Assembly (NCBI GenBank): GCA_019635285.1
Contig: JAHBZS010000004.1
Coordinates: forward strand, 62,001-126,000
DNA from: Rubrivivax sp.
Lineage (GTDB): Bacteria; Pseudomonadota; Gammaproteobacteria; Burkholderiales; Burkholderiaceae_C
Length of the DNA stretch: 64,000 nucleotides
Reading direction: 5' to 3'
The notes beneath the pieces are model-generated. The model had not been told where the DNA came from. It saw nothing but the letters and a program-made list of their open reading frames with translations, and ran no database searches. Of this stretch, positions 15,275 to 51,623 are shown piece by piece; within the stretch, counting starts at the first letter, position 1, and each line of letters opens with the position of its first letter. The position numbers and the translations under genes were made by a program.

Positions 15275-15286
15275 TTCACTACCGTA
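15275..15286. promoter_or_regulatory. Operator copy 1 (TTCACTACCGTA)
   Basis: Matches 9 of 12 positions of the recurring palindrome TACGCTAGCGTA. It is located 31 nt upstream of the acyl-CoA ligase start at 15318, within the likely promoter. It shares its left half TTCACTA with the copies at 33209, 44556 and 51612. The binding protein is unknown; TetR-type control is the natural guess for a short palindrome in a fatty-acid-like regulon. Confidence 0.55.
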
Positions 15287-15317
15287 CCGTCTTCATCGCT
15301 CGAATCAAGGCCACGAG

Positions 15318-16877
15318 ATGCAGGGCACCCGCTTCCTGATGCAGGCCGTCGCCTGCCAGCCGCACCGTACCGCCACCGTCTGCAACGGCCGGCGCCGCAG
15401 CTGGAAGGAGGTCGGCGGCCGCGTGCCACGCCTGGCCGGCGCGTTGCGCGCGCTGGGCATTGCCGACGGGCGCTTCGTTGCCGCGCTGGCGATGAATTCA
15501 GACCGCTACATCGAGCTGTTCTTCGCCGTGCCGTGGGCCGGCGGCGCATTTGCACCGCTGAACATCCGCTGGTCGGTGGAAGAGAACGTCTACGCGCTGA
15601 CCGATTCGAAGGCTTCCGTGCTGTTCGTCGACGACAGCTTCCTCGATCAGAGTCTGGAGCTGAAGCGCCGTCTCGACTGGGTCGAGCACCTGGTCTGGAT
15701 CGGCGAAGCGCCCTGCCCCGACGGCCTGCTCGACTACGAAACGCTGATCGCCGCGCACGAGCCGCTGCCCGATGCCGGCCGCAACGGCGAGGACCTGTGG
15801 GTCATCTTCTACACCGGCGGCACCACCGCGCACCCCAAGGGCGTGATGATGAGCCACCGCGGCCTGTTCGTCGCCACGCTGGGCTATCTGGCCTGGCTGC
15901 CCGACATCGAGGACCTGAGCTTCGTCTACGTCGCCGGCTACTTCCATTTCGCCGGCGCCAGCGCCCTGCTGTACATCACGCTGGCCGGCGGCACGCATAT
16001 TCCGCTGCCGAAGTTCGACCCGGTGCTGGTGATGGAGGCGATCGCCGAGCACAAGGCCACCAATGCGGTGCTGGTGCCGACGATGATCAACCTGCTGATC
16101 CGGCACCCGGACTTCGAGCATTACGACCTGTCGAGCCTGCGCACCTGCGTCTACGGCGGCAGCCCGATGCCCGAGGCGCTGATCACCGAGGCGATGCGCA
16201 AGCTGCCCACCTGGCGCTTCTTCCAGGTCTTCGGCATGACCGAGACCGGCGGCTTCGCCACCATCCTGCGCTGGCGCGACCACCTGACCAGCGGCCCGAA
16301 GGCGAAGCGCCTGCGCTCGGCCGGCCAGCCGGCGCCGGGCAACGAGGTGAAGGTGCTGCTGGCCGACGGCAGCGAGGCGCCGCCCGACACCCTGGGCGAG
16401 ATCGTCGTGCGGAGCAGCATGCTGATGAACGGCTACTTCAACAACCCGGAGGCGACCGCCGCGGTGCTGAAGGACGGCTGGATGCATACCGGCGACGCCG
16501 GCACGATGGACGAGGACGGTTACCTCTACGTGGCCGACCGCATCAAGGACATGATCGTCACCGGCGGCGAGAACGTCTATTCGATCGAGGTCGAACGCGT
16601 GCTCTTCCTGCACCCCGCCGTGCGCGAGGCCGCGGTGATCGGCATCCCCAGCGCGCAATGGGGCGAAAGCGTGCATGCGGTGGTCGTGCCGAAGGACGGC
16701 ATGCGCGTCAGCGAGTCCGAGCTCGATGCGCACTGCCGCGCGCACATCGGCGGCTACAAGGTGCCGCGCAGCTACGAGTTCCGCAGCGACCCGCTGCCGG
16801 TCACACCCGTCGGCAAGGTGCGCAAGAACGTGCTGCGCGATCCGCACTGGGTGGGTCGCGAACGCAAGATCAGCTGA
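15318..16877 (+). CDS. Acyl-CoA synthetase (AMP-binding, ANL superfamily)
   Basis: 519-residue adenylate-forming ligase. The phosphate-binding loop FYTGGTTAHPKGVMMSHRG is at about residues 164-182, the ATP-binding motif FGMTETGGFA follows, and the hinge region reads YVADRIKDMIVTGGENVYS. The C-terminal lysine motif is TPVGKVRKNVLRD. It activates a carboxylic acid to acyl-CoA through acyl-AMP, presumably the substrate entering this pathway. It is first in a three-gene + strand unit with an ABC binding protein and an acyl-CoA dehydrogenase. An operator-like palindrome lies just upstream, so it probably belongs to the shared regulon. Substrate chain or ring type is not deducible. Confidence 0.92.
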   Translation: MQGTRFLMQAVACQPHRTATVCNGRRRSWKEVGGRVPRLAGALRALGIADGRFVAALAMNSDRYIELFFAVPWAGGAFAPLNIRWSVEENVYALTDSKASVLFVDDSFLDQSLELKRRLDWVEHLVWIGEAPCPDGLLDYETLIAAHEPLPDAGRNGEDLWVIFYTGGTTAHPKGVMMSHRGLFVATLGYLAWLPDIEDLSFVYVAGYFHFAGASALLYITLAGGTHIPLPKFDPVLVMEAIAEHKATNAVLVPTMINLLIRHPDFEHYDLSSLRTCVYGGSPMPEALITEAMRKLPTWRFFQVFGMTETGGFATILRWRDHLTSGPKAKRLRSAGQPAPGNEVKVLLADGSEAPPDTLGEIVVRSSMLMNGYFNNPEATAAVLKDGWMHTGDAGTMDEDGYLYVADRIKDMIVTGGENVYSIEVERVLFLHPAVREAAVIGIPSAQWGESVHAVVVPKDGMRVSESELDAHCRAHIGGYKVPRSYEFRSDPLPVTPVGKVRKNVLRDPHWVGRERKIS

Positions 16878-16895
16878 ATCACTGGAGACGAGACC

Positions 16896-18080
16896 ATGAC
16901 GAAGAAGGGCATTCTGGCAACGCTGACGCTGGCCGCGGCGTTGCATGGCGGCGCGATCGCGCAACAGACCATCAAACTGGGCGTGATCAGCATCGACGCC
17001 GGCCCGCTCGCCGTGAGCACCGGTGCGATCGTCGACGGCGCCACGCTTGCCGTCGAGATGCTGAACGCGAAGGGCGGAGCGCTCGGCCGCAAGTACGAAC
17101 TCGTGGTCCAGGGCCACGATGGCCCGCCCGCAGGCGCGATCGCTGCGGCAACCAAGCTGGTGCGTCAGCAGGGCGTGTCCTTCTTTACCGGCATCAGCCC
17201 GTCCGGCAACTCGCTGGCGGTCAGCGCCAAGCTGGCCGACCTGGACGCGCTGTACCTGGACGCCACGGCGGCCAGCGACGACCTCACCGGCAAGAACTGC
17301 AACCCCAACTACTTCCGTGTCGGCATCAGCGACTCGAGCCAGGTGCAGGTGTGGCGCGAACTGGCGCAGCGCCACGGCGCCAAGACTTTCGACCTGCTGA
17401 TGGCCGACATTGCCGCGGCGCGCGACGCCACCAGGCGCTTCGTCGCCGTGCTGCCGGGCATCGGCGGTACCGTCGGCAAGGAGATCTACGCGCCGCTGAA
17501 CACCACCGACTTCGGCGGGCAGATCGCCCAGCTGCAGGCCAAGCCGGCCGATTCGCTGGTGATGTACATGCCCGGCTCGGCCGGTATCGCGCTGTCCAAG
17601 CAGCAGGCGCCCTTCGGCCTGTTCGACAAGTACAAGCTGGTGATGAGCGCTTCGATGGTCAACGAGATCCTGATCGCCGGCCAGGCCGACACCACCGCTG
17701 GCGTGTGGTCGTCGCAGAGCTACTTCTGGTCGCTGCCCGGGGACACGAACGCCGAGTTCGTCAAGGCCTTCGAGGCGCGCTTCAACCGCAAGCCCAGCTA
17801 CCTGTCCGCCGACGCGTACATCGCCTTCATGCTGGCGCACGAGGCCATCCAGAAGGCCAAGTCCACCGACGTCGCCGCGGTGCGCAGCGCGCTCAACGGC
17901 CTGAAGTTCGACACGCTCGTCGGCCCGGTGGAGATGCGCGCCGCCGACCACCAGCTGGTGCGGCCGCTGGTCGTGGTGCAGGCTGTGAAGGCGGCGCCGG
18001 GCAAGGGCGAGATCGCGCTGCGCTCGGTGGAGCCGGCGGCGCGCATCACGCTGCCGCCCAGCGCCGAATGCAAGATGTAG
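16896..18080 (+). CDS. ABC transporter substrate-binding protein (Liv/branched-chain type)
   Basis: 394-residue periplasmic binding protein with a signal peptide (ILATLTLAAALHGGAIAQ), mature start QTIKLGVISIDAGPL, and the type I periplasmic fold. It is a paralog of the binding protein at 31987: both contain FGLFDKYKLV, an EMRAADH-type block near the C-terminus and a terminal PPS/PAS-ECK motif. No permease or ATPase gene is adjacent, so it may share the LivHMGF proteins encoded at 28649-31967. GGAGACGAGACC precedes the ATG. Placement between a CoA ligase and an acyl-CoA dehydrogenase suggests it binds the aromatic, alicyclic or side-chain acid degraded here rather than an amino acid. Confidence 0.92.
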   Translation: MTKKGILATLTLAAALHGGAIAQQTIKLGVISIDAGPLAVSTGAIVDGATLAVEMLNAKGGALGRKYELVVQGHDGPPAGAIAAATKLVRQQGVSFFTGISPSGNSLAVSAKLADLDALYLDATAASDDLTGKNCNPNYFRVGISDSSQVQVWRELAQRHGAKTFDLLMADIAAARDATRRFVAVLPGIGGTVGKEIYAPLNTTDFGGQIAQLQAKPADSLVMYMPGSAGIALSKQQAPFGLFDKYKLVMSASMVNEILIAGQADTTAGVWSSQSYFWSLPGDTNAEFVKAFEARFNRKPSYLSADAYIAFMLAHEAIQKAKSTDVAAVRSALNGLKFDTLVGPVEMRAADHQLVRPLVVVQAVKAAPGKGEIALRSVEPAARITLPPSAECKM

Positions 18081-18082: not shown

Positions 18083-19246
18083 ATGGGCACGGAGCCCGAG
18101 CTGGCGCGCCACCTGGCGCAAGCGCGCGATTTCAGACAGTGGGCCGACGGCCATGCGGACGAGATCGAGACCACGCAGGCGCTGCCCACGGCGCTGAGCG
18201 CGCGCCTGCGCGAACTGGGCTACTTCGGCATCACCATCCCACGCGGCTACGGCGGGCTTGGTCTCGGGCTCGTGGGCTATGCCGAGATCATGGCCGAGCT
18301 GTCGAAGGCCCACGCCGCCATCGGCGGCCGCGTGGCGCTGAACAACATGGTGGCCTCGCAGGTGGTGCTGCTGGGCGGTACCGAGGTGCAGAAGCAGCGC
18401 TTCCTGCGCCCGATGGCCACTGGCGAAGCGCTGGCGGCCTTCGCGCTGACCGAACCCGGAGCCGGCTCCGACGCCGCCGGCGTGAGCACGCGCGCGTCGC
18501 GCGATGGCGACCATTGGGTGATCGACGGCATGAAGCACCTGATCATGCATGCGCCGATTGCCGACCTGGTGACCGTGATCGCCAGCACTGAACCCGAACG
18601 CGGCGCGAAGGGCCTGAGCGCCTTCGTCGTGCCCCGCGGCACACCCGGCTTGCGGCAGGCGCCGGCACAACGGCCGATGGCGTCGCGCACGACGGTGGGC
18701 GAACTGCATTTCGAGGGCTGCCGCGTCCCCGCCGACCACCTGATCGGCGCGCCCGGCAAGGGCTTCTCGCTGGCCATGCGGGCGCTGGACATGACGCGGG
18801 TGGGCGTAGGCGCCTATGCCGTCGGCAGCGCGGAGCGCGCGCTGGAGCTGAGCGTGCACCATCTGCAGGGACGCCGCCAGTTCGGTCGCCCGCTGGCCGA
18901 GCAGCAGGGCCTGCAGTGGATGCTGGCGGAGATGGCCACCGACATCGCCGCGGCGCGGGCGCTGCTGCGCAGCTTGGCCGCGAAGATGGATGCCGGCGAG
19001 CCAGCTTCCGCCGACGCGGCGATGCTCAAGCTCTTTGCCTCGGAGATGTGCGGCCGCGTCGCCGACAAGGCGCTGCAGCTGCACGGCGGCATTGCCTACC
19101 TGCACGACCACCCGATATCGCGCATCTACCGCGACGTGCGGCTGTGGCGCATCGTCGACGGCACGTCCGAGATCCAGAAGACGGTCATCGCCCGCGAACT
19201 GCTGGCGGCGGACCAGATGCCGTCCGGCACCCCATACGCCGGTTGA
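18083..19246 (+). CDS. Acyl-CoA dehydrogenase
   Basis: 387-residue ACAD with LTEPGAGSDAAGVSTRAS, HWVIDGMKHL, GRRQFGRPLAEQQGLQWML, LQLHGGIAYLHDHPISRIYR and IVDGTSEIQKTVIAREL. The residue at the usual catalytic Glu of the YEGT motif is Asp (VDGT), which may still act as base or signal that the base comes from helix G. The ATG at 18083 lies 2 nt after the stop of the binding protein; another in-frame ATG at 18068 would overlap that stop. Third gene of the ligase, binding protein, dehydrogenase unit, so it is probably the first oxidation step for the acyl-CoA made by the ligase. Confidence 0.92.
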   Translation: MGTEPELARHLAQARDFRQWADGHADEIETTQALPTALSARLRELGYFGITIPRGYGGLGLGLVGYAEIMAELSKAHAAIGGRVALNNMVASQVVLLGGTEVQKQRFLRPMATGEALAAFALTEPGAGSDAAGVSTRASRDGDHWVIDGMKHLIMHAPIADLVTVIASTEPERGAKGLSAFVVPRGTPGLRQAPAQRPMASRTTVGELHFEGCRVPADHLIGAPGKGFSLAMRALDMTRVGVGAYAVGSAERALELSVHHLQGRRQFGRPLAEQQGLQWMLAEMATDIAAARALLRSLAAKMDAGEPASADAAMLKLFASEMCGRVADKALQLHGGIAYLHDHPISRIYRDVRLWRIVDGTSEIQKTVIARELLAADQMPSGTPYAG

Positions 19247-19261: not shown

Positions 19262-20035
19262 TCACCGCGGCTGGCGGCGCAGCCTGGCCAGCCGCGTGTC
19301 AATCTCCTCGCGGCTCACGCCCAGGTTCGCGGCCCGCGCCGCGTCGCGCTCGAACACCAGCGCCTCGGCCAGCGGCCGCCCCGCCTCTTCGTCGAGCAGC
19401 TTCTTGTAGGCCACCACGCCTTCGGGCACGTTGGCCAGCATCTGCCGCGCCAGCGCCTGCGCCTCGGCCATCAGCTGCGCAGGCGGCACGACGCGGTTGA
19501 CCAGGCCCCAGGCCAGGGCCTCGTCGGCGTCGAAGAAGCGGCCGGTCAGCGCCAGCTCCTTGGCGCGGTGCGAGCCCAGGCGCTGTTGCATGCGCACCGA
19601 GCCGCCCCATCCGGGCAACAGGCCCACCTTGGCATGCGTGTCGGCGAAACGAGCGTCGCTGGCGGCGACGAGCAGGTCGCAGGCCAGCGCAATCTCCAGC
19701 CCGCCGGTGATGGCCAAGCCGTTGATCGCGCCGATCACCGGGCCGCTGAACTGCTGCAGCGCGGCCACGGCGTTGAATTCCCAGGCGGCAGCCGCCGGCG
19801 CCGCGCTCCATTCGTCGAGGTCCAGTCCTGCGGTGAAGGCGCGGCCGGTGCCGGTGAGGATCAGCACACGTACCGCCGCGTCGGCCTCGAGCGCCGCCAC
19901 CGCCTGCTGCAGCTCGCGGCGCAGCGCGATCGACAGCGTGTTCAGCTTGTCCGGCCGGTTGAAGGCGACGGTGGCGAAACCTTCGTCGCTGCGCTCGACA
20001 CGCAGCGTCTCGTAGGCGGCCTCGCAGGCGGCCAT
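19262..20035 (-). CDS. Enoyl-CoA hydratase/isomerase family protein
   Basis: 257-residue crotonase. FNRPDKLNTLSIALRREL, TGTGRAFTAGLDLDEWS (oxyanion hole) and NGLAITGGLEIALACDLLVA are visible. The first catalytic Glu (GGLE) is present. The second position falls in DTHAKVGLLPGWGGSVRMQQ and is His/Ala rather than Glu, a subclass seen in many beta-oxidation clusters, so exact chemistry is uncertain. The ATG at 20035 overlaps by one base the stop of the preceding crotonase (TGATG); a GTG one codon earlier is less likely. It ends convergently 15 nt from the acyl-CoA dehydrogenase at 18083. Confidence 0.88.
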   Translation of the reverse strand: MAACEAAYETLRVERSDEGFATVAFNRPDKLNTLSIALRRELQQAVAALEADAAVRVLILTGTGRAFTAGLDLDEWSAAPAAAAWEFNAVAALQQFSGPVIGAINGLAITGGLEIALACDLLVAASDARFADTHAKVGLLPGWGGSVRMQQRLGSHRAKELALTGRFFDADEALAWGLVNRVVPPAQLMAEAQALARQMLANVPEGVVAYKKLLDEEAGRPLAEALVFERDAARAANLGVSREEIDTRLARLRRQPR

Positions 20036-20832
20036 CACGCGCCCCTGAACGCCGGCTTGCGCCGCTCGACCATCGCCGCGATGCCTTCCTGCGCGTCGGC
20101 GCTGCCGGCCACCCGCGCCAGCGTCAGCGCCTCGTCCTCGAGCTGCGCGGTCAGCAACCCGCCCCCGGCCGCAGCAAACAGCCGCTTGATCTGCCCATAG
20201 GCCACGGTCGGACCGTCGGCCAGCCGCTGCGCCAGCGCGCGGGCCTCGTCCTGCAGCCGGTCGTCAGCCACCACGCGGTCGGCCAGGCCGGCCTGCAGCG
20301 CCTCGGCGCTGCTGAGCACCTCGGCCAGCAGCACGAAGCGCCGGGCCCGGGCCACGCCCATGCGCGCCGTCAGCGTCAGGCTGGAGCCCGAATCGCAGCT
20401 GAAGCCCAGCTGCGCGAAGGCCGAGCCGAAGCGCGCCGACTCGCCCGCCAGCACCACGTCCGCGCCGGCCAGCAGCGCCACGCCGCCGCCCATCGCGAAG
20501 CCTTGCACCGCGCACACCACCGGCACCGGCAGCTGCCAGAAGCGCTGCAGCCCCATGTGCAGGTTGGCCGTCCATTCGCGCACCAGCGGCCCCAGCTGGT
20601 CGCGCACCGGGTAGAAGCTCTTCAGGTCGCCGCCGTAGCTGAAGTTGGCGCCTGCAGCCTGCAGCAGCACGGCGCGCACGCCGCCGGCGTCGTGCCGGTC
20701 CCACAGCGTGGCAGCCACGGCCTTGAAATCGCGCGTGAAGTCGCCGTCGAAAGGGTTGCCACGCGCCGCCTGCGTCAGCGTGACGAGCGCCAGCGCGCCC
20801 TGCATCTCGAGTTGAACAGCGGGATCGCTCAT
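20035..20832 (-). CDS. Enoyl-CoA hydratase/isomerase family protein
   Basis: 265-residue crotonase beginning MSDPAVQLEMQGALALVTLT. The oxyanion-hole loop GANFSYGGDLKSFY and GFAMGGGVALLAGADVVLAG are present. Both canonical catalytic glutamates appear replaced (GGGVALL and SAFAQLGFS), pointing to an isomerase, a thioester hydrolase or a non-standard hydratase rather than a textbook hydratase. It is first in the two-crotonase minus-strand unit. Its start lies 82 nt from the divergent AttH/CrtC-like gene, and the intervening region holds a near-perfect copy of the recurring palindrome. Confidence 0.85.
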   Translation of the reverse strand: MSDPAVQLEMQGALALVTLTQAARGNPFDGDFTRDFKAVAATLWDRHDAGGVRAVLLQAAGANFSYGGDLKSFYPVRDQLGPLVREWTANLHMGLQRFWQLPVPVVCAVQGFAMGGGVALLAGADVVLAGESARFGSAFAQLGFSCDSGSSLTLTARMGVARARRFVLLAEVLSSAEALQAGLADRVVADDRLQDEARALAQRLADGPTVAYGQIKRLFAAAGGGLLTAQLEDEALTLARVAGSADAQEGIAAMVERRKPAFRGA

Positions 20833-20871: not shown

Positions 20872-20883
20872 TACGCTACCGTA
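20872..20883. promoter_or_regulatory. Operator copy 2 (TACGCTACCGTA)
   Basis: Matches 11 of 12 positions of TACGCTAGCGTA and extends to the 14-bp near-palindrome GTACGCTACCGTAC (20871-20884). It lies in the divergent promoter region between the crotonase starting at 20832 (-) and the AttH/CrtC-like gene at 20915 (+), 39 and 31 nt from the two start codons, so one bound protein could control both directions. Confidence 0.6.
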
Positions 20884-20914: not shown

Positions 20915-22024
20915 ATGCTGACCCCGCAGGACGATCTCATCGGCCACCAGCTGCCGACCACCTTCGACCAGATCGACAACAGCGACCCGGCGTGGATGGA
21001 GCGGCTGTGGTACACCGGCCACCCGGTGCCCGGCAGCGACGTGATCTTCGACATCGGCCTGGGCTACCACCCGAACCGCAACGTGATGGACGGCTTCGCC
21101 GGCGTGGCGGTACCGGGGCGGCAGTGGAACTTCCGCGCCAGCCGCCGGCTGCGCCCGGACCCGCTCAATACCACCATCGGGCCGCTCTCGATCCGCGTGA
21201 TCGAAGGCTTGAAGCGGCATGCGCTGACGCTGGGACCCAACGACTCCGGCCTGCGCTTCGAACTGGAGTTCCATGCCACGCTCAACCCGCACGAGGAAGC
21301 CGGCCACCTGCGCCGGCGCGACGGCCGGGTCACCGAGCACATGTACCGCGCCCAGCAGATGGGGCGCTACACCGGCTGGCTGGAGTTCGACGGCCGGCGC
21401 ATGGAGGTGGACAGCTGGCTGGGCCAGCGCGACCACAGCTGGGGCGTGCGCGCGGAGATGCGCAGCGACGAGACCCACCCGCCGCTGACCTACTACCCGC
21501 CGTTCTTCTTCTGCTGGACCACGGCGCAGTTCAAGGACTACGGCCTGGTGATCTTCCTCAAGGAGCGCGCGCCCGGCGACGTCATCTACCTCAGCGGCGA
21601 GATCGTGCGGCCGCTGGGCCAGCGGGCCTCGGGCCGCGACCAGCTGGTCGCGGTGCAGCACGACGCCAAGTGGCTGGCCGACCCGCTGGGGCAGAGCCTG
21701 GACCAGGCCAACTTCGATCTGACCTTCGCCAGCGGCGAACGCCGCACGGTGCAGGTGCGCGCGCTGCCGGCGCGGTACTACCTGAAAGGCGGCCTGTACG
21801 GTGGCCTGGACGGCTGGTTCCACGGCGACGACAAGGGCAAACTGTTCGCCGCCCACGACCAGTGGGACCTGCAGGATCCGGCCACGCGCCGCAAGCTGCG
21901 CACGCTGGCCGACCAGGTGATCGAGGTGCGCGACGGCGACCAGGTGGGCTACGGCATCATCGAATACGGCGTCGCCAAGGGCTATGCCAAGTACGCCGAG
22001 GTGCAGGAGCATCCGGCGATCTGA
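20915..22024 (+). CDS. AttH/CrtC-like (lipocalin-type) conserved protein, paralog B
   Basis: 369 residues, no signal peptide. It contains FDIGLGYHPNRNVMDGFAG, GPLSIRVIEGLKRHALTLG and, in the centre, FDGRRMEVDSWLGQRDHSWG, the AttH/CrtC-type DHxWG region. Aligned blocks with paralog A (7646-8791) are extensive; paralog C (27549-28568) shares the GRR-EVD-DHSW segment. Family members with known activity act on isoprenoids (CrtC hydratase) or lipids; nothing here identifies the reaction. The start is set at ATG 20915, because the frame upstream crosses the operator palindrome at 20872 and is unlikely to be coding. It is followed 11 nt later by a Crp/Fnr regulator. Confidence 0.7.
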   Translation: MLTPQDDLIGHQLPTTFDQIDNSDPAWMERLWYTGHPVPGSDVIFDIGLGYHPNRNVMDGFAGVAVPGRQWNFRASRRLRPDPLNTTIGPLSIRVIEGLKRHALTLGPNDSGLRFELEFHATLNPHEEAGHLRRRDGRVTEHMYRAQQMGRYTGWLEFDGRRMEVDSWLGQRDHSWGVRAEMRSDETHPPLTYYPPFFFCWTTAQFKDYGLVIFLKERAPGDVIYLSGEIVRPLGQRASGRDQLVAVQHDAKWLADPLGQSLDQANFDLTFASGERRTVQVRALPARYYLKGGLYGGLDGWFHGDDKGKLFAAHDQWDLQDPATRRKLRTLADQVIEVRDGDQVGYGIIEYGVAKGYAKYAEVQEHPAI

Positions 22025-22035: not shown

Positions 22036-22755
22036 ATGCGCAGGCCGCTCCATCATTCGAGCCCCGGGACCTCCGCCGATGCCGGCGAGGGTACGCTCGA
22101 ACCATTCGGCATGTTTCCGGTGGAGGTCGCCCAGACCCTGCGACGCCACGCCGTGCACCGCTGCTGGCGCGACGGCGATGTGGTGCTGCCAGCGGACCGC
22201 GTCGTGCCGTGGATCCTGACGGTGGTGCGCGGCATGCTGCGCATGGCGGCGACCCTGGAGGACGGCCGCGACGTGTTCTTCCGCTGGCACGGCCCGGGCG
22301 AGATGGCTGGCATGATTTCCGCCATCGCGGACCTGCCGCTGCCGGTGGACGCCGTGGCGCACGACCGCTGCGAAACGCTGCACGTCGAGCGCGAACTGCT
22401 CGTGGACATGATGCTGCGGGACGGCGGCGTGGCGCTGGCGGTGACGCGGCTGAACGCGCGTCACACCTACGACACCGTGAACCTCGTGCGCATGAACCAT
22501 GAGTCGTCGCTGAACGCCCGCGTGCTTGGCGTGCTGCGGCATCTGGCGGTGGTCAACGGTACGCGCGAGGCGCCTGGCGCGATGGCGCTGCCGGTTTCGC
22601 AGCGCGACATCGCCGCGGCGCTCGGCGCGTCGCGGCAGCGCGTCAATGCCGAGCTGAAAGCGCTGGAGCAGGCCGGGCTCATCCGACTTGGCTACAACCG
22701 GATCATCCTGTTCGAACCCGCTGCCCGCGCGCCGGCGGCCGTGCTGACGCACTGA
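22036..22755 (+). CDS. Crp/Fnr-family transcriptional regulator
   Basis: 239-residue predicted DNA-binding protein. Residues about 25-130 form a cyclic-nucleotide-binding-like beta-roll containing WILTVVRGMLRMAATLEDG and FFRWHGPGEMAGMISAIADL. The C-terminal winged helix-turn-helix is VSQRDIAAALGASRQRVNAE followed by LKALEQAGLIRLGYNRI. No cysteine cluster for an iron-sulfur centre is apparent, so it is more Crp-like than Fnr-like; the ligand is unknown. ATG 22036 is used, though MFPVEVAQTL at 22111 could be the true start. Its position just before a phosphotransferase/TRAP unit suggests local control of uptake. It is the only regulator of its class in the window. Confidence 0.88.
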   Translation: MRRPLHHSSPGTSADAGEGTLEPFGMFPVEVAQTLRRHAVHRCWRDGDVVLPADRVVPWILTVVRGMLRMAATLEDGRDVFFRWHGPGEMAGMISAIADLPLPVDAVAHDRCETLHVERELLVDMMLRDGGVALAVTRLNARHTYDTVNLVRMNHESSLNARVLGVLRHLAVVNGTREAPGAMALPVSQRDIAAALGASRQRVNAELKALEQAGLIRLGYNRIILFEPAARAPAAVLTH

Positions 22756-30101: not shown

Positions 30102-30102
30102 G

Positions 30103-33208: not shown

Positions 33209-33220
33209 TTCACTAGCGTA
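33209..33220. promoter_or_regulatory. Operator copy 3 (TTCACTAGCGTA)
   Basis: Matches 10 of 12 positions of TACGCTAGCGTA and is identical over 12 bases to the copy at 51612. It lies 28 nt upstream of the Liv binding-protein start at 33180, in an AT-richer patch (TTAATTCACTAGCGTAATG) that stands out from the GC-rich surroundings and probably includes promoter elements. Confidence 0.6.
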
Positions 33221-37600: not shown

Positions 37601-37612
37601 TACGCTAGCGTA
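37601..37612. promoter_or_regulatory. Operator copy 4 (TACGCTAGCGTA, perfect palindrome)
   Basis: A perfect 12-bp palindrome, the best copy of the set, within TTACGCTAGCGTACTT. It lies in the 57-nt gap between the acyl-CoA dehydrogenase start at 37563 and the end of the racemase gene at 37621, so it should control the minus-strand operon running to 33322. The gap is AT-rich for this genome (GATGATATCTTACG), consistent with a promoter. Confidence 0.65.
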
Positions 37613-44551: not shown

Positions 44552-44555
44552 GTCG

Positions 44556-44567
44556 TTCACTAACGTA
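44556..44567. promoter_or_regulatory. Operator copy 5 (TTCACTAACGTA)
   Basis: Matches 9 of 12 positions of TACGCTAGCGTA. It lies 4 nt upstream of the ATG of the SDR at 44551. This is the closest spacing of all copies, overlapping the region where a ribosome binding site would be. The adjacent CGAAATCCATCATAG is AT-rich. The transcript of the downstream seven-gene operon may be nearly leaderless. Confidence 0.5.
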
Positions 44568-44636: not shown

Positions 44637-44656
44637 GATCATCTATGCTGCACGGC

Positions 44657-45685: not shown

Positions 45686-46566
45686 ACCTGGCCTACGTCA
45701 GCGGCCTGCGCTTCGCGCCGACCGATCAGGACTACGAGTGGCGCGACAGCCTGCTCTATGCGCTGGCGCTGGGTTTCGGCCGGGATCCGCTGCACCGCGG
45801 CGAGCTGCCCTATGTCTATGAGGCGGTGCCCGGCCGGCCACAGCGGGTGGTGCCGTCGATGGCGGTCATCCTCGGCTGGCAGCCCTTCTGGCACGACGAC
45901 CCGGCCGCGGCCATCGACTGGAAGCGCATCGTGCACGGCGAAGCGCACCTGCAGCTGCACGCGCCGCTGCCGGCCGCCGGCCGCGTGTGCACCCGGCACC
46001 GGCTGGTGCGCGTGCGGGACAAGGGCGCAGGCCGCGGCGCGGTGCTGCAGATCGACACCGAGCTGTTCGAGCGCGAACGGGGCACGCACCTAGCCACGCT
46101 GCAGAGCCTGCAGTTCCTGCGCGGCGACGGCGGCTGCGGCGACTGGGGCGATCCCGCCGCAGCGGCGCCGGTGCTGCCGGCGCTGGACGAGGACGCGGTG
46201 CCGATCGCCTGCGTGGACCTGCCCACGCCGCAGCATGCCGCGCTGCTGTACCGCATCGCCAGCCGCGACTGGATGCCGATCCATGCCGACCCCGCGATCG
46301 CCCGACAGGCCGGCTTCGAGCGGCCGATCTCGCACGGGCTCAACAACCTGGGCATCGCCTGCCGCGCGCTGCTGACGACGCTGGGCCTGGACCGGCCCGA
46401 GCGGCTGCGCTCGCTGGCGGCGCGCTTCGTCGCTCCCGGCCTGCCGGGCGATACGGTGCGCGTGGAGATCTTCCGTCGCGACGCGTTGACGCTGCAGTTC
46501 CGTGCCAGCGCGATGGAGCGCGGCGTATGCGTGCTCGACCGCGGTCTGGCGCAACTGCACGATTGA
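45682..46566 (+). CDS. Enoyl-CoA hydratase 2 (MaoC-like double hotdog, MFE-2 type)
   Basis: 294 residues covering two hotdog units, the length of the hydratase-2 domain of peroxisomal MFE-2. The N-terminal half has YEWRDSLLYALALGFGRDP and YVYEAVPGRPQRVVPSMAVI, typical of that domain. The catalytic segment in the C-terminal half reads SRDWMPIHADPAIARQAGFE. Asp and His of the GDxNPxH motif are kept, but the Asn is Met (RDWMPIH), and HGLNNLGIACRAL follows. It would hydrate trans-2-enoyl-CoA to 3R-hydroxyacyl-CoA, matching the MFE-2-like SDR at 50621. The GTG start overlaps the preceding stop by 4 nt. Confidence 0.87.
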   Translation: MNLAYVSGLRFAPTDQDYEWRDSLLYALALGFGRDPLHRGELPYVYEAVPGRPQRVVPSMAVILGWQPFWHDDPAAAIDWKRIVHGEAHLQLHAPLPAAGRVCTRHRLVRVRDKGAGRGAVLQIDTELFERERGTHLATLQSLQFLRGDGGCGDWGDPAAAAPVLPALDEDAVPIACVDLPTPQHAALLYRIASRDWMPIHADPAIARQAGFERPISHGLNNLGIACRALLTTLGLDRPERLRSLAARFVAPGLPGDTVRVEIFRRDALTLQFRASAMERGVCVLDRGLAQLHD

Positions 46567-46594: not shown

Positions 46595-47581
46595 ATGAAG
46601 ATCTGCATCTTCGGCGCCGGCGCGATCGGCGGCTTCGTCGCCGCGCACCTGGCGCGGGTCGACGGCCTGCAGCTCAGCGTGGTGGCACGCGGTGCGCACC
46701 TGCAGGCGATCCGCGAGCGCGGTCTGCGCATGCTGTCGCCGCAGGGCGAACAGGTCGCTCGGGTGCACGCCACCGACCTCGCGGAGGAACTGGGCCCGCA
46801 GGACGTGGTGTTCATCGCGCTGAAGCAGCACCAGGTGGCAGCCGCGCTGCCGGCGCTGGCCTCGCTGCTCGGGCCGCACACCGCGGTGCTGCCGCCAACC
46901 ACCGGCATTCCCTACTGGTACTTCCACGGCCTGGGCGGGCCCCATGCGGGGCATCGGATCGACCGCCTCGACCCGGACGGCGCGCAGTGGCGCACGCTCG
47001 ATCCGGCACGCGCCATCGGCTGCGTCTACTGGACCGCGACCGAACTGGTCGAACCCGGCGTGGTGCGCCACGACGGCCACCTGCTGCGCTTCCCGATCGG
47101 CGAGCCGGACGGCCAAGTCACGCCGCGCCTGCAGGCGCTGGCGGACGCGATGAACGCAGCCGGGCTGAACGCGCCGATCGTGCCGGACATCCGCGCCTGG
47201 ATCTGGGCCAAGATGATCAGCAGCCTGTGCTGGAACCCGGTGGCCGTGCTCACCGGCGCCACGCTCGACCGGCTGACCGCCGCGCCGGGGGTGCTGGCGC
47301 TGGTGCGCCGCATGATGCGCGAGGCCGAGACGGTGGCCGAGGCGCTGGGCGTCGAGCGCTGGCCGATCAGCATCGACGAGCGCATTGCCGCGGCGCGCAA
47401 CGCAGGCGCGCACCGCATGTCGATGCTGCAGGACTGGGAGCGTGCCCGGCCGCTGGAGATCGACGTGCTGAACGCTTCGATCGAAGCGATGGCCGACCTC
47501 GCCGGCCTCGAGACGCCGACGATCGACGCCGTTTATGCCCTGTTGCGCCTGCGCGCCAGCAGCGCCTCGGCCGCGCGCTGA
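46595..47581 (+). CDS. Ketopantoate reductase (ApbA/PanE) family protein
   Basis: 328-residue NADPH-binding protein: MKICIFGAGAIGGFVAAHLA (GAGxxG), VFIALKQHQVAAALPAL, the C-terminal-domain Lys in IWAKMISSLCWNPVAVLTG, and DWERARPLEIDVLNASIEAM, the PanE substrate-loop region. The family reduces 2-oxo acids with a gem-dimethyl or bulky branch. In this operon, after an MDR reductase and hydratase 2, it more likely acts on a branched 2-oxo acid of the pathway than in pantothenate synthesis. It starts 28 nt after the hydratase and its 3' end overlaps the convergent crotonase gene by 49 bp. Confidence 0.88.
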   Translation: MKICIFGAGAIGGFVAAHLARVDGLQLSVVARGAHLQAIRERGLRMLSPQGEQVARVHATDLAEELGPQDVVFIALKQHQVAAALPALASLLGPHTAVLPPTTGIPYWYFHGLGGPHAGHRIDRLDPDGAQWRTLDPARAIGCVYWTATELVEPGVVRHDGHLLRFPIGEPDGQVTPRLQALADAMNAAGLNAPIVPDIRAWIWAKMISSLCWNPVAVLTGATLDRLTAAPGVLALVRRMMREAETVAEALGVERWPISIDERIAAARNAGAHRMSMLQDWERARPLEIDVLNASIEAMADLAGLETPTIDAVYALLRLRASSASAAR

Positions 47582-48336
47582 AGCGCGCCAGTGCCGCGGG
47601 CCAGGATCTGCGAGCGGTTCTCCAGCTCGATCGCCTGCGCCAGGCCCGGCGCCTCGAGGTTGGCCCAGGCGCCCCGCTTGGTCATCCACACCGCGAAGGC
47701 GTCGTTGGCCACGATCTCGCGCGCCGTCGCCAGCGCACGCGGCAGCAGCTGGTCGTCGGGCACGGTGGCGCTGACCAGGCCGATGCGTTCGGCCTCGTCG
47801 GCATCGACCATGCGGCCGGTGAGCAGAATCTCGAAGGAGCGCGAACTGCCGATGCAGCGCGGCAGCAGCCAGCTCACCCCCATGTCGCAGCCGGTCATGC
47901 CGACCTTGACGAAGGCGGCGTTGAAGCGCGCCGACCGTGCGGCGAAGCGGATCTCGGCGCCCAGCGCCAGCGCCAGGCCGGCCCCGTTGGCGCTGCCGTT
48001 GACGGCCGCGATCACCGGCGCGCGCAGGCCGCGCAGCTTGGTGACCAGTGCCGCGAAACGCTCCTGGCGCAGCGACCACGCAGCCGCGGCGCCCTCGTCG
48101 TCTTCGCCCGGCGCGGCCGCCGCCAGCGACAGGTCGAAGCCGGCGCAGAAGGCGCGTCCGGCGCCGGTGAGGATCAGCACCCGCAGCTGGCGCTCGGCCA
48201 CCAGCGCATCCAGACGCGCCGACAGCTCGGCCACCATGTCGTCGGACAGCGCGTTCAGCGCCTGCGGCCGGCTCAGCGTCAGCAGCGCGATGCCCGGTTC
48301 GGGCCACGTCAGCGGCAGCGTGCCCAATGCACTCAT
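47533..48336 (-). CDS. Enoyl-CoA hydratase/isomerase family protein
   Basis: 267-residue crotonase starting MSALGTLPLTWPEPGIALLT. The oxyanion-hole loop TGAGRAFCAGFDLSLAAAA and NGSANGAGLALALGAEIRFA are present. Both catalytic Glu positions are changed (GAGLALAL; then FNAAFVKVGMTGCDMG), a pattern I know from a crotonase subclass with VSWLLPRCIG-type sequence in steroid and aromatic-acid clusters; its exact reaction is not certain. Overlaps the stop of the CoA ligase gene by 4 nt, so it is translationally coupled to the ligase. The 3' end overlaps the convergent PanE-like gene by 49 bp. Confidence 0.87.
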   Translation of the reverse strand: MSALGTLPLTWPEPGIALLTLSRPQALNALSDDMVAELSARLDALVAERQLRVLILTGAGRAFCAGFDLSLAAAAPGEDDEGAAAAWSLRQERFAALVTKLRGLRAPVIAAVNGSANGAGLALALGAEIRFAARSARFNAAFVKVGMTGCDMGVSWLLPRCIGSSRSFEILLTGRMVDADEAERIGLVSATVPDDQLLPRALATAREIVANDAFAVWMTKRGAWANLEAPGLAQAIELENRSQILARGTGALQRAAEALLARRRNRA

Positions 48337-49955
48337 GTGCCCGCCGCGGCCTCGCGCAGCTTGAACTTCTGGATCTTGCCGCTGGGCGTGCGCGGCAGGT
48401 CGTCCAGGATCTCCACGCGCTCGGGCCAGTATTGTTTGGCGACCTTGCATTCGGCCATGTAGGCCTGCAGCGCCTTCAGCGACAACGCGGCACCGGGGCG
48501 CAGCACCACGAAGGCGCAGCCGCGCTCGCCGAGCCGCGCATCGGGATAGCCCACCAGCGCCGCCGCGGCCACCGCCGGGTGCTTGTACAGCAGCGCCTCA
48601 ATCTCCACGACCGGCACGTTCTCGCCGCCGCGGATCAGCACGTCCTTGGTGCGGCCGTTGATGCGGATGTAGCCCTCGTCGTCGGCGTAGGCCAGGTCGC
48701 CGGTGTCGAACCAGCCCTCGGTGTCGAAGGTCTCGATGTCCGCGCGCTTGTAGTAGCCCAGGAACATCTGCGCGCCGCGCACCAGCAGCCGCCCGGTCTC
48801 GCCCGCCGGCAGCGTGCGGCCGTCGAAGTCGACGACCTTGACGTCGACGCCGTCGAGCGTGCGACCATCGGTCGTGGCCGATTTCTCGACGGCGCGCGCA
48901 GGCTCGGTGAGCGTGCTGGACAGCGACTCGGTCATGCCCCACAGCGAACAGACCTTCAGGTCCAGCTCGCGCAGCGCGCGCTCGATCAGCACCGGCGGAA
49001 TCGGCGCGCCGCCGCACAGGAAGCTGCGCAGCTGCGTCGGCCGCGGCGCGCCGGCCGCCACCGCGTCGCAGATGTCCGACAGGAAAGGCGTGGACGCGGC
49101 GGTGAAGGTCACGCCCTCCGCAGCCATGATGCTCACGCCGCGCTGCACTTCCCAGATGTCCTGCAGCACCACCGTCGAGCCCAGGCTGATGCCCAGCAGC
49201 ATCACCGCGGCATAGCCCGTCATGTGCCCCAGCGGCGAGCAGGCCAGGAACACGTCGTCGCCGCTCAGGCCGAAGCGGCCCGCCAGCGCGCGGTTGCAGG
49301 CCAGCAGCGTGTTGTGGCTGTGCATCACGCCCTTCGGCGAGCCGGTGGTGCCGGAGGTGAACATCACCACCGCCATCGCGTCGGGCGCCAGCCGCGGCGG
49401 CCGGCTGGGTTCGACACGGTCCGGCCCCGACAGCAGCGCGTGCTCGAAGCCGTGCTCGCCGTCCTCGTCGACGACGATCACGTGCTGCAGTGCCGGCAGC
49501 TCGCGCTGCAGCGCACGCGCCATCGACGCATGGTCGAAGCCGCGGAACAACTTCGGCACCAGCAGCAGCTTGGCTTCGGCGAAGCCGAGCATGTAGGACA
49601 ACTCGCGCTCGCGGAAGATCGGCATCAGCGGGTTGACAACCGCGCCGATGCGGTTGGCCGCCATCGAGACGACGACGAATTCCCACCAGTTGGGCAGCTG
49701 CACCGCCACGATATCGCCTGCGCCGATGCCCAGGCGCTGCAGGCCGCCGGCGCAGCGCGCCACCCGATCGCCGAACTCGCGCCAGTTGAAGCGTGCCACC
49801 GCATCGCGATCGGCGCGATAGCCCACCAGCGCCGGCTTGTCCGGCGTGGCCTCGATGGCGCGCAGCAGCAGCTCGTCGAAGGCCATGTCGGCCCAGTAGC
49901 CCCCGTCGCGCATGCGGCGCGCATGCGCCGCGGGGTCGAATCGACTCACCGTCAT
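48333..49955 (-). CDS. CoA ligase, cyclohexanecarboxylate-CoA ligase (AliA)-like
   Basis: 540-residue AMP-forming ligase: P-loop FTSGTTGSPKGVMHSHNTLL at about residues 199-218, LWGMTESLSSTLTEP, the motif GYIRINGRTKDVLIRGGENV, and the C-terminal Lys in PRTPSGKIQKFKL. The general pattern (SPLGHMTGYAAVMLLG) resembles AliA/cyclohexanecarboxylate-CoA ligases. Activation of an alicyclic acid would fit the BadH/BadI homologues encoded at 54352-55935, but the assignment rests on context. The start at 49955 is backed by AGGAGAAGCGGA. Operator copy 6 lies 61 nt upstream. Confidence 0.88.
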   Translation of the reverse strand: MTVSRFDPAAHARRMRDGGYWADMAFDELLLRAIEATPDKPALVGYRADRDAVARFNWREFGDRVARCAGGLQRLGIGAGDIVAVQLPNWWEFVVVSMAANRIGAVVNPLMPIFRERELSYMLGFAEAKLLLVPKLFRGFDHASMARALQRELPALQHVIVVDEDGEHGFEHALLSGPDRVEPSRPPRLAPDAMAVVMFTSGTTGSPKGVMHSHNTLLACNRALAGRFGLSGDDVFLACSPLGHMTGYAAVMLLGISLGSTVVLQDIWEVQRGVSIMAAEGVTFTAASTPFLSDICDAVAAGAPRPTQLRSFLCGGAPIPPVLIERALRELDLKVCSLWGMTESLSSTLTEPARAVEKSATTDGRTLDGVDVKVVDFDGRTLPAGETGRLLVRGAQMFLGYYKRADIETFDTEGWFDTGDLAYADDEGYIRINGRTKDVLIRGGENVPVVEIEALLYKHPAVAAAALVGYPDARLGERGCAFVVLRPGAALSLKALQAYMAECKVAKQYWPERVEILDDLPRTPSGKIQKFKLREAAAGT

Positions 49956-50016: not shown

Positions 50017-50028
50017 TACGCTAGCGAA
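50017..50028. promoter_or_regulatory. Operator copy 6 (TACGCTAGCGAA)
   Basis: Matches 11 of 12 positions of TACGCTAGCGTA (AATTAGTACGCTAGCGAACT in context). It is located 61 nt upstream of the CoA ligase start at 49955 and 50 nt downstream of the MarR gene end, in a local AT-rich patch. Because the two flanking genes run in the same direction, it should control the ligase/crotonase pair. Confidence 0.6.
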
Positions 50029-50078: not shown

Positions 50079-50555
50079 TCAGGCCTCTTCGGCCTGCAGA
50101 TAGTCGATCAGGTTGCGCTTCATCGCGGCCAGCGTGCCGGCCGTGTGCTCGAGCTTGTCGTCGGGCAGGCCGGCCAGGATGCGTTCGTTCATCCGGTGGT
50201 TGATCTTGCGCAGGCGAGCCACCAGCTGCTTGCTCTTCGGCTCGAGGAAGACGCGGTTGACGCGCCGGTCGGTCGCATCGGCCTCGCGCCGCACCAGGCC
50301 GGACTTCTCGAGACGGTCGATCAGGCCGCCGACTGCGACCTTGCCCAGGTCCAGCTCGTCGGCGAGCTGGCTCTGGGTCATGCCGTCCTCGCGCGACAGG
50401 TAGGCCAGCACCCACCACTGCGAGCGCGTCACGTTCAACGGCTTCATGCAGCGGTCGAAGGCGCTGCGCCGCAGGCGCGACACGTCGTGGATCAGGAAAC
50501 CCAGGCGCAGTTCCCAGTCGATGTTGTGCGGTTCGTTCGGTGTGGTTGCAGGCAT
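50079..50555 (-). CDS. MarR-family transcriptional regulator
   Basis: 158-residue winged-helix protein. The recognition region is MTQSQLADELDLGKVAVGGL followed by IDRLEKSGLVRREADATDRR, the wing being DATDRRVNRVFLE. The long helices at both ends form the dimer interface. MarR proteins repress catabolic operons and release DNA on binding an aromatic or CoA-ester ligand. A 22-bp palindrome directly upstream is a likely autoregulatory site. The ATG at 50555 follows AGAGGAAATCTCGGC. The upstream SDR gene on the same strand ends 65 nt away. It may also act at the CATG-centred sites elsewhere, but this is not shown. Confidence 0.9.
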   Translation of the reverse strand: MPATTPNEPHNIDWELRLGFLIHDVSRLRRSAFDRCMKPLNVTRSQWWVLAYLSREDGMTQSQLADELDLGKVAVGGLIDRLEKSGLVRREADATDRRVNRVFLEPKSKQLVARLRKINHRMNERILAGLPDDKLEHTAGTLAAMKRNLIDYLQAEEA

Positions 50556-50594: not shown

Positions 50595-50616
50595 ACAATA
50601 TACCTGCGTATATTGT
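50595..50616. promoter_or_regulatory. MarR-type palindrome (ACAATATAC-CTGC-GTATATTGT)
   Basis: Two perfect 9-base inverted arms separated by CTGC, a 22-bp dyad typical of MarR operators. It lies 39 nt upstream of the MarR start and 4 nt past the SDR stop codon. It is the most AT-rich stretch in this part of the window. Autoregulation of the MarR gene is the simplest reading. Confidence 0.7.
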
Positions 50617-50620
50617 GGGG

Positions 50621-51541
50621 CTACATAGGATCCCAGGTGAACACGTCCGAGGAACGGTCCAGCGCGTAGAAGCCCGGGCGCAGCATCGGCAGCGCCGACG
50701 CGAGGATGCCCTCCGGCGTCCAGCCATCGCCGCAGTGCGCGTTGCGCACCGGACGCGGCTGGCTGAACAGGTAGATCTCGTTGTTGCGCACGCCGAAGAC
50801 CTGGCCGCTCACGTCCTTGGCGGCGTCGGCGCACAACGCCACGACGAAGGGCGCGACCTTCGCCGGCACCAGCTTCTTCAGCCCATCGACGCGCTTCTTC
50901 TGTTCCGGCGTCTCCGCGGGAATGCTGTCGATCATCCGCGTCCAGGCGAAGGGCGCGACCGCGTTCGAGCGCACGCCGAACTTCTGCATGTCCAGCGCGA
51001 TGCTCTTCGACAGCGCCATGATGCCCAGTTTGGCCGCCGAGTAGTTGGCCTGGCCGAAGTTGCCGATCAGGCCCGAGGTGGAGCTCATGTGCACGTACAC
51101 GCCGCTGCCCTGGGCCTTGAAGTGCGGCGCGGCCGCGCGACTGACGTTGAAGCTGCCCTTCAGGTGCACGGCGATCACCGCGTCGAACTCCGCCTCGCTC
51201 ATGCGGTGGAACATCACGTCACGCAGGATGCCGGCGTTGTTGACGACGATGTCGATGCGGCCGAAGGTCTCGACCGCGGTGGTCACCATGCGATGCGCGG
51301 CATTCCATTCGGCGACCGAGCCGCCGTCCGCGACCGCCTCGCCGCCGATCGCGCGGATCGCCGCCACCACCTCGTCGCCGGGCTGCTCGCCGCTGGCCTG
51401 TCCGTCCAGCGTCGCGCCGAGGTCGTTGACCACGACCTTGGCGCCGGCTTCGGCCAGCGCCAGGCAGATGCCGCGGCCCACGCCGCGCCCGCCGCCGGTC
51501 ACCAGGGCCACCCTGCCCTCGAGAAGACGCCTGTCACTCAT
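50621..51541 (-). CDS. MFE-2-type SDR (3R-hydroxyacyl-CoA dehydrogenase-like)
   Basis: 306-residue SDR. Cofactor motif VTGGGRGVGRGICLALAEAG is followed by VVVNDLGATLDGQASGEQPG, then VVAAIRAIGG. The NDLG insertion after strand two is diagnostic of the dehydrogenase domain of peroxisomal multifunctional enzyme 2. NNAGILRDVMFHRMSE, Ser in HMSSTSGLIGNFGQ and YSAAKLGIMALSKS with Tyr and Lys are all present. It would oxidise 3R-hydroxyacyl-CoA, the product of hydratase 2 (45682). An extra C-terminal 70 residues (VRNNEIYLFSQPRPVRNAH) precede the stop. Divergent from the thiolase operon with operator copy 7 between them. Confidence 0.9.
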   Translation of the reverse strand: MSDRRLLEGRVALVTGGGRGVGRGICLALAEAGAKVVVNDLGATLDGQASGEQPGDEVVAAIRAIGGEAVADGGSVAEWNAAHRMVTTAVETFGRIDIVVNNAGILRDVMFHRMSEAEFDAVIAVHLKGSFNVSRAAAPHFKAQGSGVYVHMSSTSGLIGNFGQANYSAAKLGIMALSKSIALDMQKFGVRSNAVAPFAWTRMIDSIPAETPEQKKRVDGLKKLVPAKVAPFVVALCADAAKDVSGQVFGVRNNEIYLFSQPRPVRNAHCGDGWTPEGILASALPMLRPGFYALDRSSDVFTWDPM

Positions 51542-51611
51542 GTGTCACTCCTGTCGATGTGGGTCGCACCGCTCCGGCGCGCATCCGGGATCGCCCGGGG
51601 GTTGCATATCG

Positions 51612-51623
51612 TTCACTAGCGTA
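51612..51623. promoter_or_regulatory. Operator copy 7 (TTCACTAGCGTA)
   Basis: Matches 10 of 12 positions of TACGCTAGCGTA and is identical over 12 bases to copy 3 at 33209. It lies in the divergent region between the MFE-2-type SDR start at 51541 (-) and the HMGCS/KAS-like gene start at 51655 (+), 31 nt from the latter, so it may regulate both operons, including the ring-cleavage genes. Confidence 0.6.

What the first reader, a model, noticed from the sequence alone, without database searches (positions are those of the whole stretch)
15275..51623. Seven copies of a TACGCTAGCGTA-like palindrome define a probable single regulon
Copies at 15275, 20872, 33209, 37601, 44556, 50017 and 51612 fit TWCRCTANCGWA, and every one lies in a gap 4-70 nt upstream of a start codon. 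Copy 37601 is a perfect palindrome; 33209 and 51612 are identical. By rough arithmetic with equal base use, that degenerate 12-mer is expected about 0.24 times in both strands of 64 kb, although the pattern was derived from these same sites. The sites cover the CoA ligases, Liv importer, racemase operon, PECR/kinase operon, MFE-2-like SDR and the ring-cleavage operon. No gene in the window encodes an obvious TetR protein, so the regulator is probably elsewhere.
Basis: partly seen in the sequence, partly recalled or inferred. Interest (0 to 1): 0.8.

Follow-up and report, generated by a model that had tools for sequence, protein, structure and literature searches.

The report
Local MarR regulon for ring-acid breakdown
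Seven copies of a short mirror-image DNA sequence mark the promoters of a gene cluster that probably breaks down ring-shaped acids, and they are most likely the landing sites of a MarR-family switch protein whose gene lies inside the same cluster.

Summary
Confirmed and extended. All seven sites are present (0 in 100 shuffles). The 4.9-Mb genome holds two further exact places, one inside a gene and one between convergent gene ends. Four of 59 same-genus genomes carry an 82-84% identical MarR, and all 14 of their exact sites lie on the MarR contig. A matrix from the seven sites finds 53 intergenic against 1 genic site in 33 loci of close MarR homologues. More distant homologues often sit near a one-letter variant, TATGCnnGCATA (29 of 46 loci), and motif type follows the MarR tree. 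The 12-mer is the core of a roughly 20-bp operator. Gene content resembles bad-ali and the Castellaniella monoterpene ring-cleavage island; the regulator is not BadR by the proxies tested. Likely mechanism: promoter-blocking repressor released by a pathway acyl-CoA. Binding by MarR is inferred from comparison; repression, ligand and substrate by analogy. New member of a known kind.

The parts
15275..15286 (+). Operator 1, TTCACTACCGTA, before the CoA ligase 15318-16877, SBP 16896-18080 and acyl-CoA dehydrogenase 18083-19246
   Evidence: exact match; 31 nt before start; orthologous upstream regions score 13.8, 15.8 and 20.8 in the 3 genomes with the orthologue
20872..20883 (.). Operator 2, TACGCTACCGTA, between divergent 20035-20805 (-, enoyl-CoA hydratase family) and 20915-22024 (+, DUF7065-like)
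   Evidence: kept in 4 of 4 genomes with the orthologues, scores 16.5-18.6
33209..33220 (-).
   Evidence: SBP Pfam PF13458; site kept in G006 and G017; in G027 before the first of two tandem SBP copies
37601..37612 (-). Operator 4, perfect palindrome TACGCTAGCGTA, before acyl-CoA dehydrogenase 36400-37563 (AliB-like), SDR 35511-36383, histidine phosphatase 34921-35505, APH kinase 33896-34924
   Evidence: kept in 4 of 4 genomes, scores 15.8-20.8; Pfam, NCBIfam
44556..44567 (.). Operator 5, TTCACTAACGTA, between divergent SDR 43784-44560 (-, heading genes down to the CoA-transferase III 37621-38763) and alcohol dehydrogenase 44645-45685 (+, with MaoC 45682-46566)
   Evidence: kept in G017, not before these orthologues in G027 and G006, where a one-mismatch site stands before a ligase heading a neighbouring operon
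50017..50028 (-). Operator 6, TACGCTAGCGAA, before AliA-like CoA ligase 48333-49955 and hydratase 47533-48336
   Evidence: kept in 3 of 4 genomes (absent in G004)
51612..51623 (.). Operator 7, TTCACTAGCGTA, between SDR 50621-51511 plus marR 50079-50555 (-) and the ring-cleavage operon starting at 51688 (+)
   Evidence: kept in 4 of 4 genomes before the 51688 orthologue, scores 15.8-20.0; in G004 the site lies directly between marR and the 51688 orthologue
50079..50555 (-). MarR-family regulator, 158 aa, the proposed binder of the seven sites
   Evidence: Pfam MarR_2 62.7 bits, cutoff 27; SlyA-DNA complex is the best sequence and fold relative among solved structures; 82-84% homologues in the four genomes with clustered sites
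51688..59438 (+). Ring-cleavage-type operon: HMG-CoA-synthase-like with OB domain (51688-53106), thiolase (53106-54320), SDR (54352-55122), BadI-like hydrolase (55138-55935), long hydratase (55941-57377), two MaoC (57374-57823, 57820-58200), CoA-transferase (58188-59438)
   Evidence: Pfam; NCBIfam; 55138 is 74.1% identical to a KH32C protein and up to 65.6% to annotated BadI
61111..63694 (+). MaoC (RipB-like), CitE-type lyase (RipC-like) and acyl-CoA dehydrogenase that follow the operon; no site of their own found in the window
   Evidence: Pfam, NCBIfam (all below the curated cutoffs)

Best explanation
The seven 12-mers are the cores of operators for the MarR-family protein encoded at 50079-50555. 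The full operator is about 20 bp, roughly ATNGTACRCTAGYGTACNAT, a 5-2-5 palindrome with outer AT pairs. A MarR dimer, probably with its recognition helix (residues 72-84) in each half-site, sits on all seven promoters and on two further ones of the same contig, blocks RNA polymerase and keeps importer, CoA ligases, dehydrogenases and ring-cleavage genes off. The most likely releasing ligand is an early CoA thioester of the pathway, made by the AliA-like ligase. Since marR follows the SDR gene behind site 51612, the protein probably limits its own synthesis. The pathway is most likely breakdown of an alicyclic carboxylate, perhaps monoterpenoid. Shown by sequence: sites, their confinement to this contig, conservation, association with this MarR clade. 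Inferred: physical binding by this MarR, repression, ligand, substrate.
For: Sites. Confinement. Four same-genus genomes with an 82-84% MarR hold 14 exact places, all on the MarR contig; the 55 without it hold 36 strand matches, 0-3 each (tallied by hand). Orthologous promoters: 28 of 34 against 13 of 136. Window-only matrix at threshold 15 in 33 loci of close homologues: 53 intergenic, 1 genic, 31 of 33 loci positive. 46 loci of distant homologues: few TAC sites but TATGCnnGCATA within one mismatch, 43 intergenic and 8 genic, 29 of 46 loci. Motif labels need 7 changes on the MarR tree, shuffled mean 23.2. Lone marR paralogue in G017 with a one-mismatch site 64 nt before its called start. 12-bp palindrome as for SlyA, TTAGCAAGCTAA (PMC5797941 passages). 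Best predicted promoter overlaps the 12-mer in 95 of 109 pairs, flank-shuffled mean 80.75, largest 91. BadR, a MarR repressor of a similar pathway, responds to cyclohexanecarboxyl-CoA (PMC9795900 section 18).
Against: No binding data. In the genus the MarR and the cluster co-occur, so co-occurrence alone cannot separate them (36 of the 59 genomes examined). The loci are related, so counts are not independent. Two column-permuted matrices also gave 20 and 16 intergenic hits in close loci. The G017 paralogue's site scores only 11.4, below the thresholds used. The KH32C cluster, with a 52% MarR, has one moderate site (14.3) and none beside its marR. Nine of 46 distant loci carry a TAC-type site, 12 neither type. 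A different palindrome (50596-50615) lies between the SDR gene and marR, so marR may have its own control. In G027 and G006 the two genes of site 44556 lack it, and G004 lacks that of the ligase.
Confidence: 0.75

Rival explanations
1. Another regulator encoded elsewhere binds the sites, and the MarR in the cluster is a bystander with its own operator, perhaps the palindrome at 50596-50615.
For: The MarR always accompanies the cluster in the genus; a separate perfect palindrome lies before marR in the window; regulators elsewhere in the genomes were not surveyed.
Against: The sites follow this MarR clade over many genera, and a sister clade sits near a one-letter variant; the lone paralogue has a one-mismatch site; the 50596 palindrome was not found in the upstream regions of 34 close homologues; CRP-like gene in none of 4 and TetR gene in 2 of 4 relatives.
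Confidence: 0.15
2. The MarR binds the sites but acts as an activator or anti-silencer, as SlyA can, rather than as a plain repressor.
For: SlyA, the nearest solved relative, activates by opposing H-NS in E. coli (PMC5797941 passages).
Against: Median gap to the start codon is 61 nt in 131 pairs and predicted promoters overlap the site more than in shuffles, as expected for occlusion; BadR is a repressor.
Confidence: 0.09
3. The repeats are a chance find or a mobile or structural repeat without regulatory role.
For: The pattern was derived from the sites themselves.
Against: 0 in 100 shuffles; flanks differ between the seven copies; conservation at orthologous promoters and 53 to 1 intergenic bias elsewhere.
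Confidence: 0.01

Closest known systems
BadR of Rhodopseudomonas palustris and Aromatoleum sp. CIB (bad-ali genes, cyclohexane carboxylate)
   Same: MarR-family repressor beside AliA-, AliB- and BadI-like genes; palindromic operator with 2-bp spacer; CoA-thioester effector in BadR (PMC9795900)
   Different: Operator CAATnnATTG against TACGCTAGCGTA; two bad-ali MarR proxies are 28% and 25% identical and branch apart (100/100); seven or more promoters here against two divergent ones in Aromatoleum
Castellaniella defragrans monoterpene island (mrc genes; three annotated MarR proteins, no role given in what I read)
   Same: Matching gene kinds: MrcD-H, (R)-enoyl-CoA hydratase, citrate lyase, acyl-CoA dehydrogenase, thiolase and CoA-transferase with a MarR gene (PMC4109377 section 5)
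   Different: The C. defragrans sequences were not compared; the window has a Liv-type importer, and no ctm or ldi genes were recognised among the proteins scanned
SlyA (MarR family)
   Same: Best solved sequence and fold relative; 12-bp palindromic consensus TTAGCAAGCTAA
   Different: 28% identity in the fold alignment; other half-site; other target genes
CouR (p-coumaroyl-CoA-responsive MarR)
   Same: MarR fold; structures with p-coumaroyl-CoA (5cyv) and with DNA (6c2s) are in the match list
   Different: 25% identity; aromatic acid pathway

Membership tests
MarR family regulator | MarR winged-helix domain | tested here: met
   Pfam MarR_2 62.7 bits, cutoff 27; MarR 51.1, cutoff 24.6
MarR family regulator | MarR fold | tested here: met
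   AlphaFold model pLDDT 85.7; best PDB match SlyA-DNA 3q5f, E 5.4e-10
MarR family regulator | Dimer binding a palindromic operator | not testable with these tools
   Palindromes found; binding not measured
BadR | Sequence kinship to MarR proteins of bad-ali clusters | tested here: not met
   28% and 25% identity to the MarR of two annotated aliA/aliB/badI clusters (L145, L146); separate branch 100/100.
BadR | Operator CAATnnATTG (relaxed CAAN4TTG) | tested here: not met
   No CAATnnATTG in the window; in 4 of 34 close loci. The relaxed form was not scanned in the window. The proxies are imperfect: no strict operator in L145 or L146, one relaxed copy in the L145 gap, none in that of L146
BadR | Cyclohexanecarboxyl-CoA as effector | not testable with these tools
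   Needs protein work
Monoterpene ring-cleavage (mrc) cluster | Gene set MrcD, E, F, G, H in order | tested here: inconclusive
   SDR, BadI-like, long hydratase, MaoC, MaoC stand in this order at 54352-58200; KH32C plasmid region has the same order; C. defragrans sequences not compared
bad-ali cluster | AliA ligase and AliB dehydrogenase | tested here: inconclusive
   712.5 bits against cutoff 792.3 and 546.8 against 575.35: close, below the curated cutoffs
   The one TetR gene tested on the contig (L014) is in 2 of 4 site-bearing relatives; other TetR genes of the genome were not examined

The most novel reading that the evidence does not exclude
An uncharacterised MarR clade controls alicyclic or monoterpenoid acid breakdown across Burkholderiales and Rhodocyclales. 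Its operator changed by one letter per half-site (TACGC to TATGC) along with a recognition-helix change (Val73 to Ala), so the clade is a natural series for reading how a MarR protein recognises DNA, with a regulon of nine or more promoters that travels with its cluster.
Probability: 0.35. Interest if true: 0.6.

Novelty: new member of a known kind. Interest (0 to 1): 0.45.

Why it matters
It gives a candidate regulator and operator for a large ring-acid, perhaps monoterpenoid, pathway. In the papers that I saw (listings, open-licence library only; passages or sections of five papers) I found no description of this regulon or operator; papers under other licences were not searched. The claim is directly testable with one protein and two DNA fragments. 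The site also works as a membership label: it points to a beta-keto-acid cleavage gene and a second importer outside the window. The two operator types of sister MarR clades offer a test of which residues read which base.

Tried and rejected
CRP-like regulator at 22111 as binder: no match in any of 4 relatives. TetR of the contig: 2 of 4. BadR: rejected on identity, branch and operator, with proxies. Exact sites outside the window: not promoters. Regulon members elsewhere in the genome at one mismatch: no excess. The palindrome before marR (50596-50615): not found in 34 homologous upstream regions. Papers with the motif letters and MarR with steroid terms: nothing useful. Distant MarR loci in G069, G075, G082, G088, G094, G098: different gene neighbourhoods, no clear sites. 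G077 has an exact site about 6 kb from a 45% MarR, but my gene caller worked poorly there; left open.

L061, L062, L065, L069 and L094 were kept, so those calls overlap with the four-genome test. My gene caller is a simple codon-usage script; start codons are uncertain. Searches used wrong strands and were discarded. One search fetched ten useless bases. The promoter matrices are recalled approximations.
Full report
OBSERVATION. The seven copies are real and exact (9 strand matches at 7 places, 0 in 100 shuffles; with one mismatch: the same 7 places, shuffle mean 0.87, largest 5). The window is G000:C34:62001-126000 of a 4.9-Mb, 89-contig assembly. In the whole genome the exact pattern occurs at 9 places, 7 of them here. 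The two others lie inside a called gene and between two convergent gene ends. With one mismatch there is no genome-wide excess (78 strand matches against 112 for the reversed pattern), so the regulon is local. Two near-matches on the same contig are probable members. C34:55864 (TACACTAGCATA) is 149 nt before a beta-keto-acid cleavage gene, whose orthologue stands next to marR in G027 and G006. C34:149965 (TACGCTACCGCA) is before a second importer operon; the same site is kept in G004 and G017, and L066 has a site before its orthologue.

THE REGULATOR IS IN THE WINDOW. At 50079-50555 (-) there is a 158-aa MarR-family protein (Pfam MarR_2 62.7 bits, cutoff 27). Its gene starts 65 nt behind an SDR gene whose upstream region holds site 51612, and site 50017 lies between it and the CoA ligase. 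In G004 the site lies directly between marR and the divergent 51688 orthologue. Its best solved sequence and fold relative is SlyA in complex with DNA. The model (pLDDT 85.7) has HTH helices at 61-68 and 72-84 and wing strands at 88-92 and 100-104.

CO-OCCURRENCE IN THE GENUS. Of 100 genomes searched, the own one included, 17 have some match at E up to 1e-15. Four of 59 same-genus relatives have one at 82-84% identity: G004, G006, G017 and G027; G017 also has paralogues at 72% and 52%. Those four hold 14 exact motif places (1, 4, 3, 6), all on the MarR contig. The 55 others together hold 36 strand matches, 0 to 3 each (tallied by hand). The orthologue of the 51688 gene at over 70% identity is in the same four genomes (which examined 36 of the 59), so this test does not separate MarR from cluster.

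CONSERVED PROMOTERS. The cluster is rearranged among the four genomes, yet sites stand before the orthologous genes. Scoring the 250 nt upstream with a matrix made only from the seven window sites, 28 of 34 target orthologues reach 13 or more, against 13 of 136 other genes with an upstream gap of at least 50 nt (Fisher p 1.5e-16, Mann-Whitney p 2.6e-10). The p values are nominal: genomes are related, and divergent pairs share a site. The six misses are the SBP gene of G027 (second of two tandem copies; the first has the site), both genes of site 44556 in G027 and in G006, and the ligase in G004.

WIDER TEST. A scan of named genomes gave 232 relatives, of which the best 80 were kept. For the 34 with at least 69% identity, TNCRCTANCGWA occurs 32 times against 6 for the reversed pattern in 590 kb. 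For the 46 with 50-60% identity it is 3 against 3 in 818 kb. With the window-only matrix at threshold 15 and L091 dropped, the 33 close loci give 53 intergenic and 1 genic site although about 8% of the sequence is intergenic; 31 of 33 loci are positive. The 46 distant loci give 11 and 3, with 9 of 46 positive. Up to 60 mirrored column permutations average 1.35 intergenic hits in the close group; two reached 20 and 16, so other intergenic motifs exist there. De novo palindrome counting in the distant group ranks GTATGnnnnCATAC (34 of 46 loci) and TATGCnnGCATA (29 of 46) first, the same layout with C changed to T. At up to one mismatch TATGCnnGCATA has 43 intergenic and 8 genic places. In the close group GTACGnnnnCGTAC (20 of 33) and TACGCnnGCGTA (15 of 33) are among the 25 listed, not at the top.

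TREE AND RECOGNITION HELIX. On an IQ-TREE of 85 proteins the window lies in a 35-row branch (95/91) of which 33 are TAC-type. The labels together need 7 changes, shuffled mean 23.2. Close loci: 32 TAC, 2 neither; distant loci: 25 TAT, 9 TAC, 12 neither. Position 73, at the start of the recognition helix, is Val in the window and all 34 close homologues and Ala in 38 of 46 distant ones. Of those 38, 24 are TAT-type, 7 TAC-type, 7 neither. Of the 8 distant Val rows, 2 are TAC-type, 1 TAT-type, 5 neither. The residue link is therefore suggestive only. A marR paralogue of G017 outside the cluster has TGTACTAGCGTA 64 nt before its called start, a weak site (matrix 11.4). The KH32C plasmid cluster, with a 52% MarR, has one moderate site (14.3) and none beside its marR.

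OPERATOR. Aligning 130 oriented site-gene pairs (divergent promoters counted in both directions) shows conserved flanks: A 0.72 and T 0.78 at -4 and -3, G 0.70 at -1, C 0.65 at +12, A 0.76 and T 0.62 at +14 and +15. Over 131 pairs the median gap to the start codon is 61 nt. The best predicted promoter overlaps the 12-mer in 95 of 109 pairs, flank-shuffled mean 80.75, largest 91: modest support for occlusion.

PATHWAY. The ligase 48333-49955 and dehydrogenase 36400-37563 score just below the NCBIfam cutoffs for cyclohexanecarboxylate-CoA ligase (712.5 of 792.3) and cyclohexanecarboxyl-CoA dehydrogenase (546.8 of 575.35). 55138-55935 is 74.1% identical to a KH32C protein and up to 65.6% to annotated BadI. 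The gene kinds from 51688 on match the KH32C region. The C. defragrans table names KH32C proteins as closest relatives of MrcD, MrcE and MrcH (PMC4109377 section 5); that these are the genes of the plasmid region is inferred from order. A limonene paper proposes an HMG-CoA-synthase-superfamily enzyme for a branched glutaryl-CoA step (PMC12583861, passages). An alicyclic acid with a branched side chain is the best guess, about 0.5; the substrate is unknown.

COMPARISON AND VERDICT. BadR represses bad-ali genes, binds CAATnnATTG and is released by cyclohexanecarboxyl-CoA (PMC9795900: abstract, passages, sections 18 and 21). The window's MarR sits in a similar setting and probably works alike, but two bad-ali MarR proxies are only 28% and 25% identical and branch apart, and the window has no CAATnnATTG. 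The proxy loci lack the strict BadR operator too (one relaxed copy in L145, none in L146), so the test is imperfect. SlyA's consensus is likewise a 12-bp palindrome (PMC5797941, passages). This is a real, local, conserved MarR regulon with its own operator: a new member of a known kind.

Noticed in passing
window 50596-50615: A perfect 8-bp inverted repeat, CAATATAC-ctgc-GTATATTG, lies between the SDR gene and marR; not found in the upstream regions of 34 close homologues. It may be a second control of marR.
   Followed up: partly
L062, L066, L073, L078 and others: A second element, about TACNGTACNGTA, often overlaps a site with a 5-bp shift; the matching permuted matrix gave 16 intergenic hits in close and 15 in distant loci.
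   Followed up: no
window 22111-22755: CRP-type regulator (cNMP-binding and HTH_Crp_2); no match in the four site-bearing relatives. Its own targets are unknown.
   Followed up: partly
window 6528-7646, 22871-24097, 33896-34924, 40669-41706: Four APH-type kinase genes beside acyl-CoA dehydrogenases; recalled: kinase and dehydrogenase pairs act on 4-hydroxyacyl-CoA in other systems.
   Followed up: no
G000:C39:24611-26026: A second HMG-CoA-synthase-like gene (47% to 51688-53106) elsewhere in the own genome, perhaps a paralogous cluster.
   Followed up: no
L052 15907-15918 (G077:C1:25907): An exact site about 6 kb from a 45% identical MarR in a genome of another family of the order.
   Followed up: no
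window 61111-62506: MaoC and CitE-type genes match the itaconate-degradation models RipB and RipC far below cutoff (133.6 of 340 and 151.7 of 375 bits), pointing to a branched dicarboxyl-CoA lower pathway.
   Followed up: no
C34:55864 and C34:149965 (window -6136 and 87965): Two probable further operators outside the window, before a beta-keto-acid cleavage gene and a second importer operon.
   Followed up: partly
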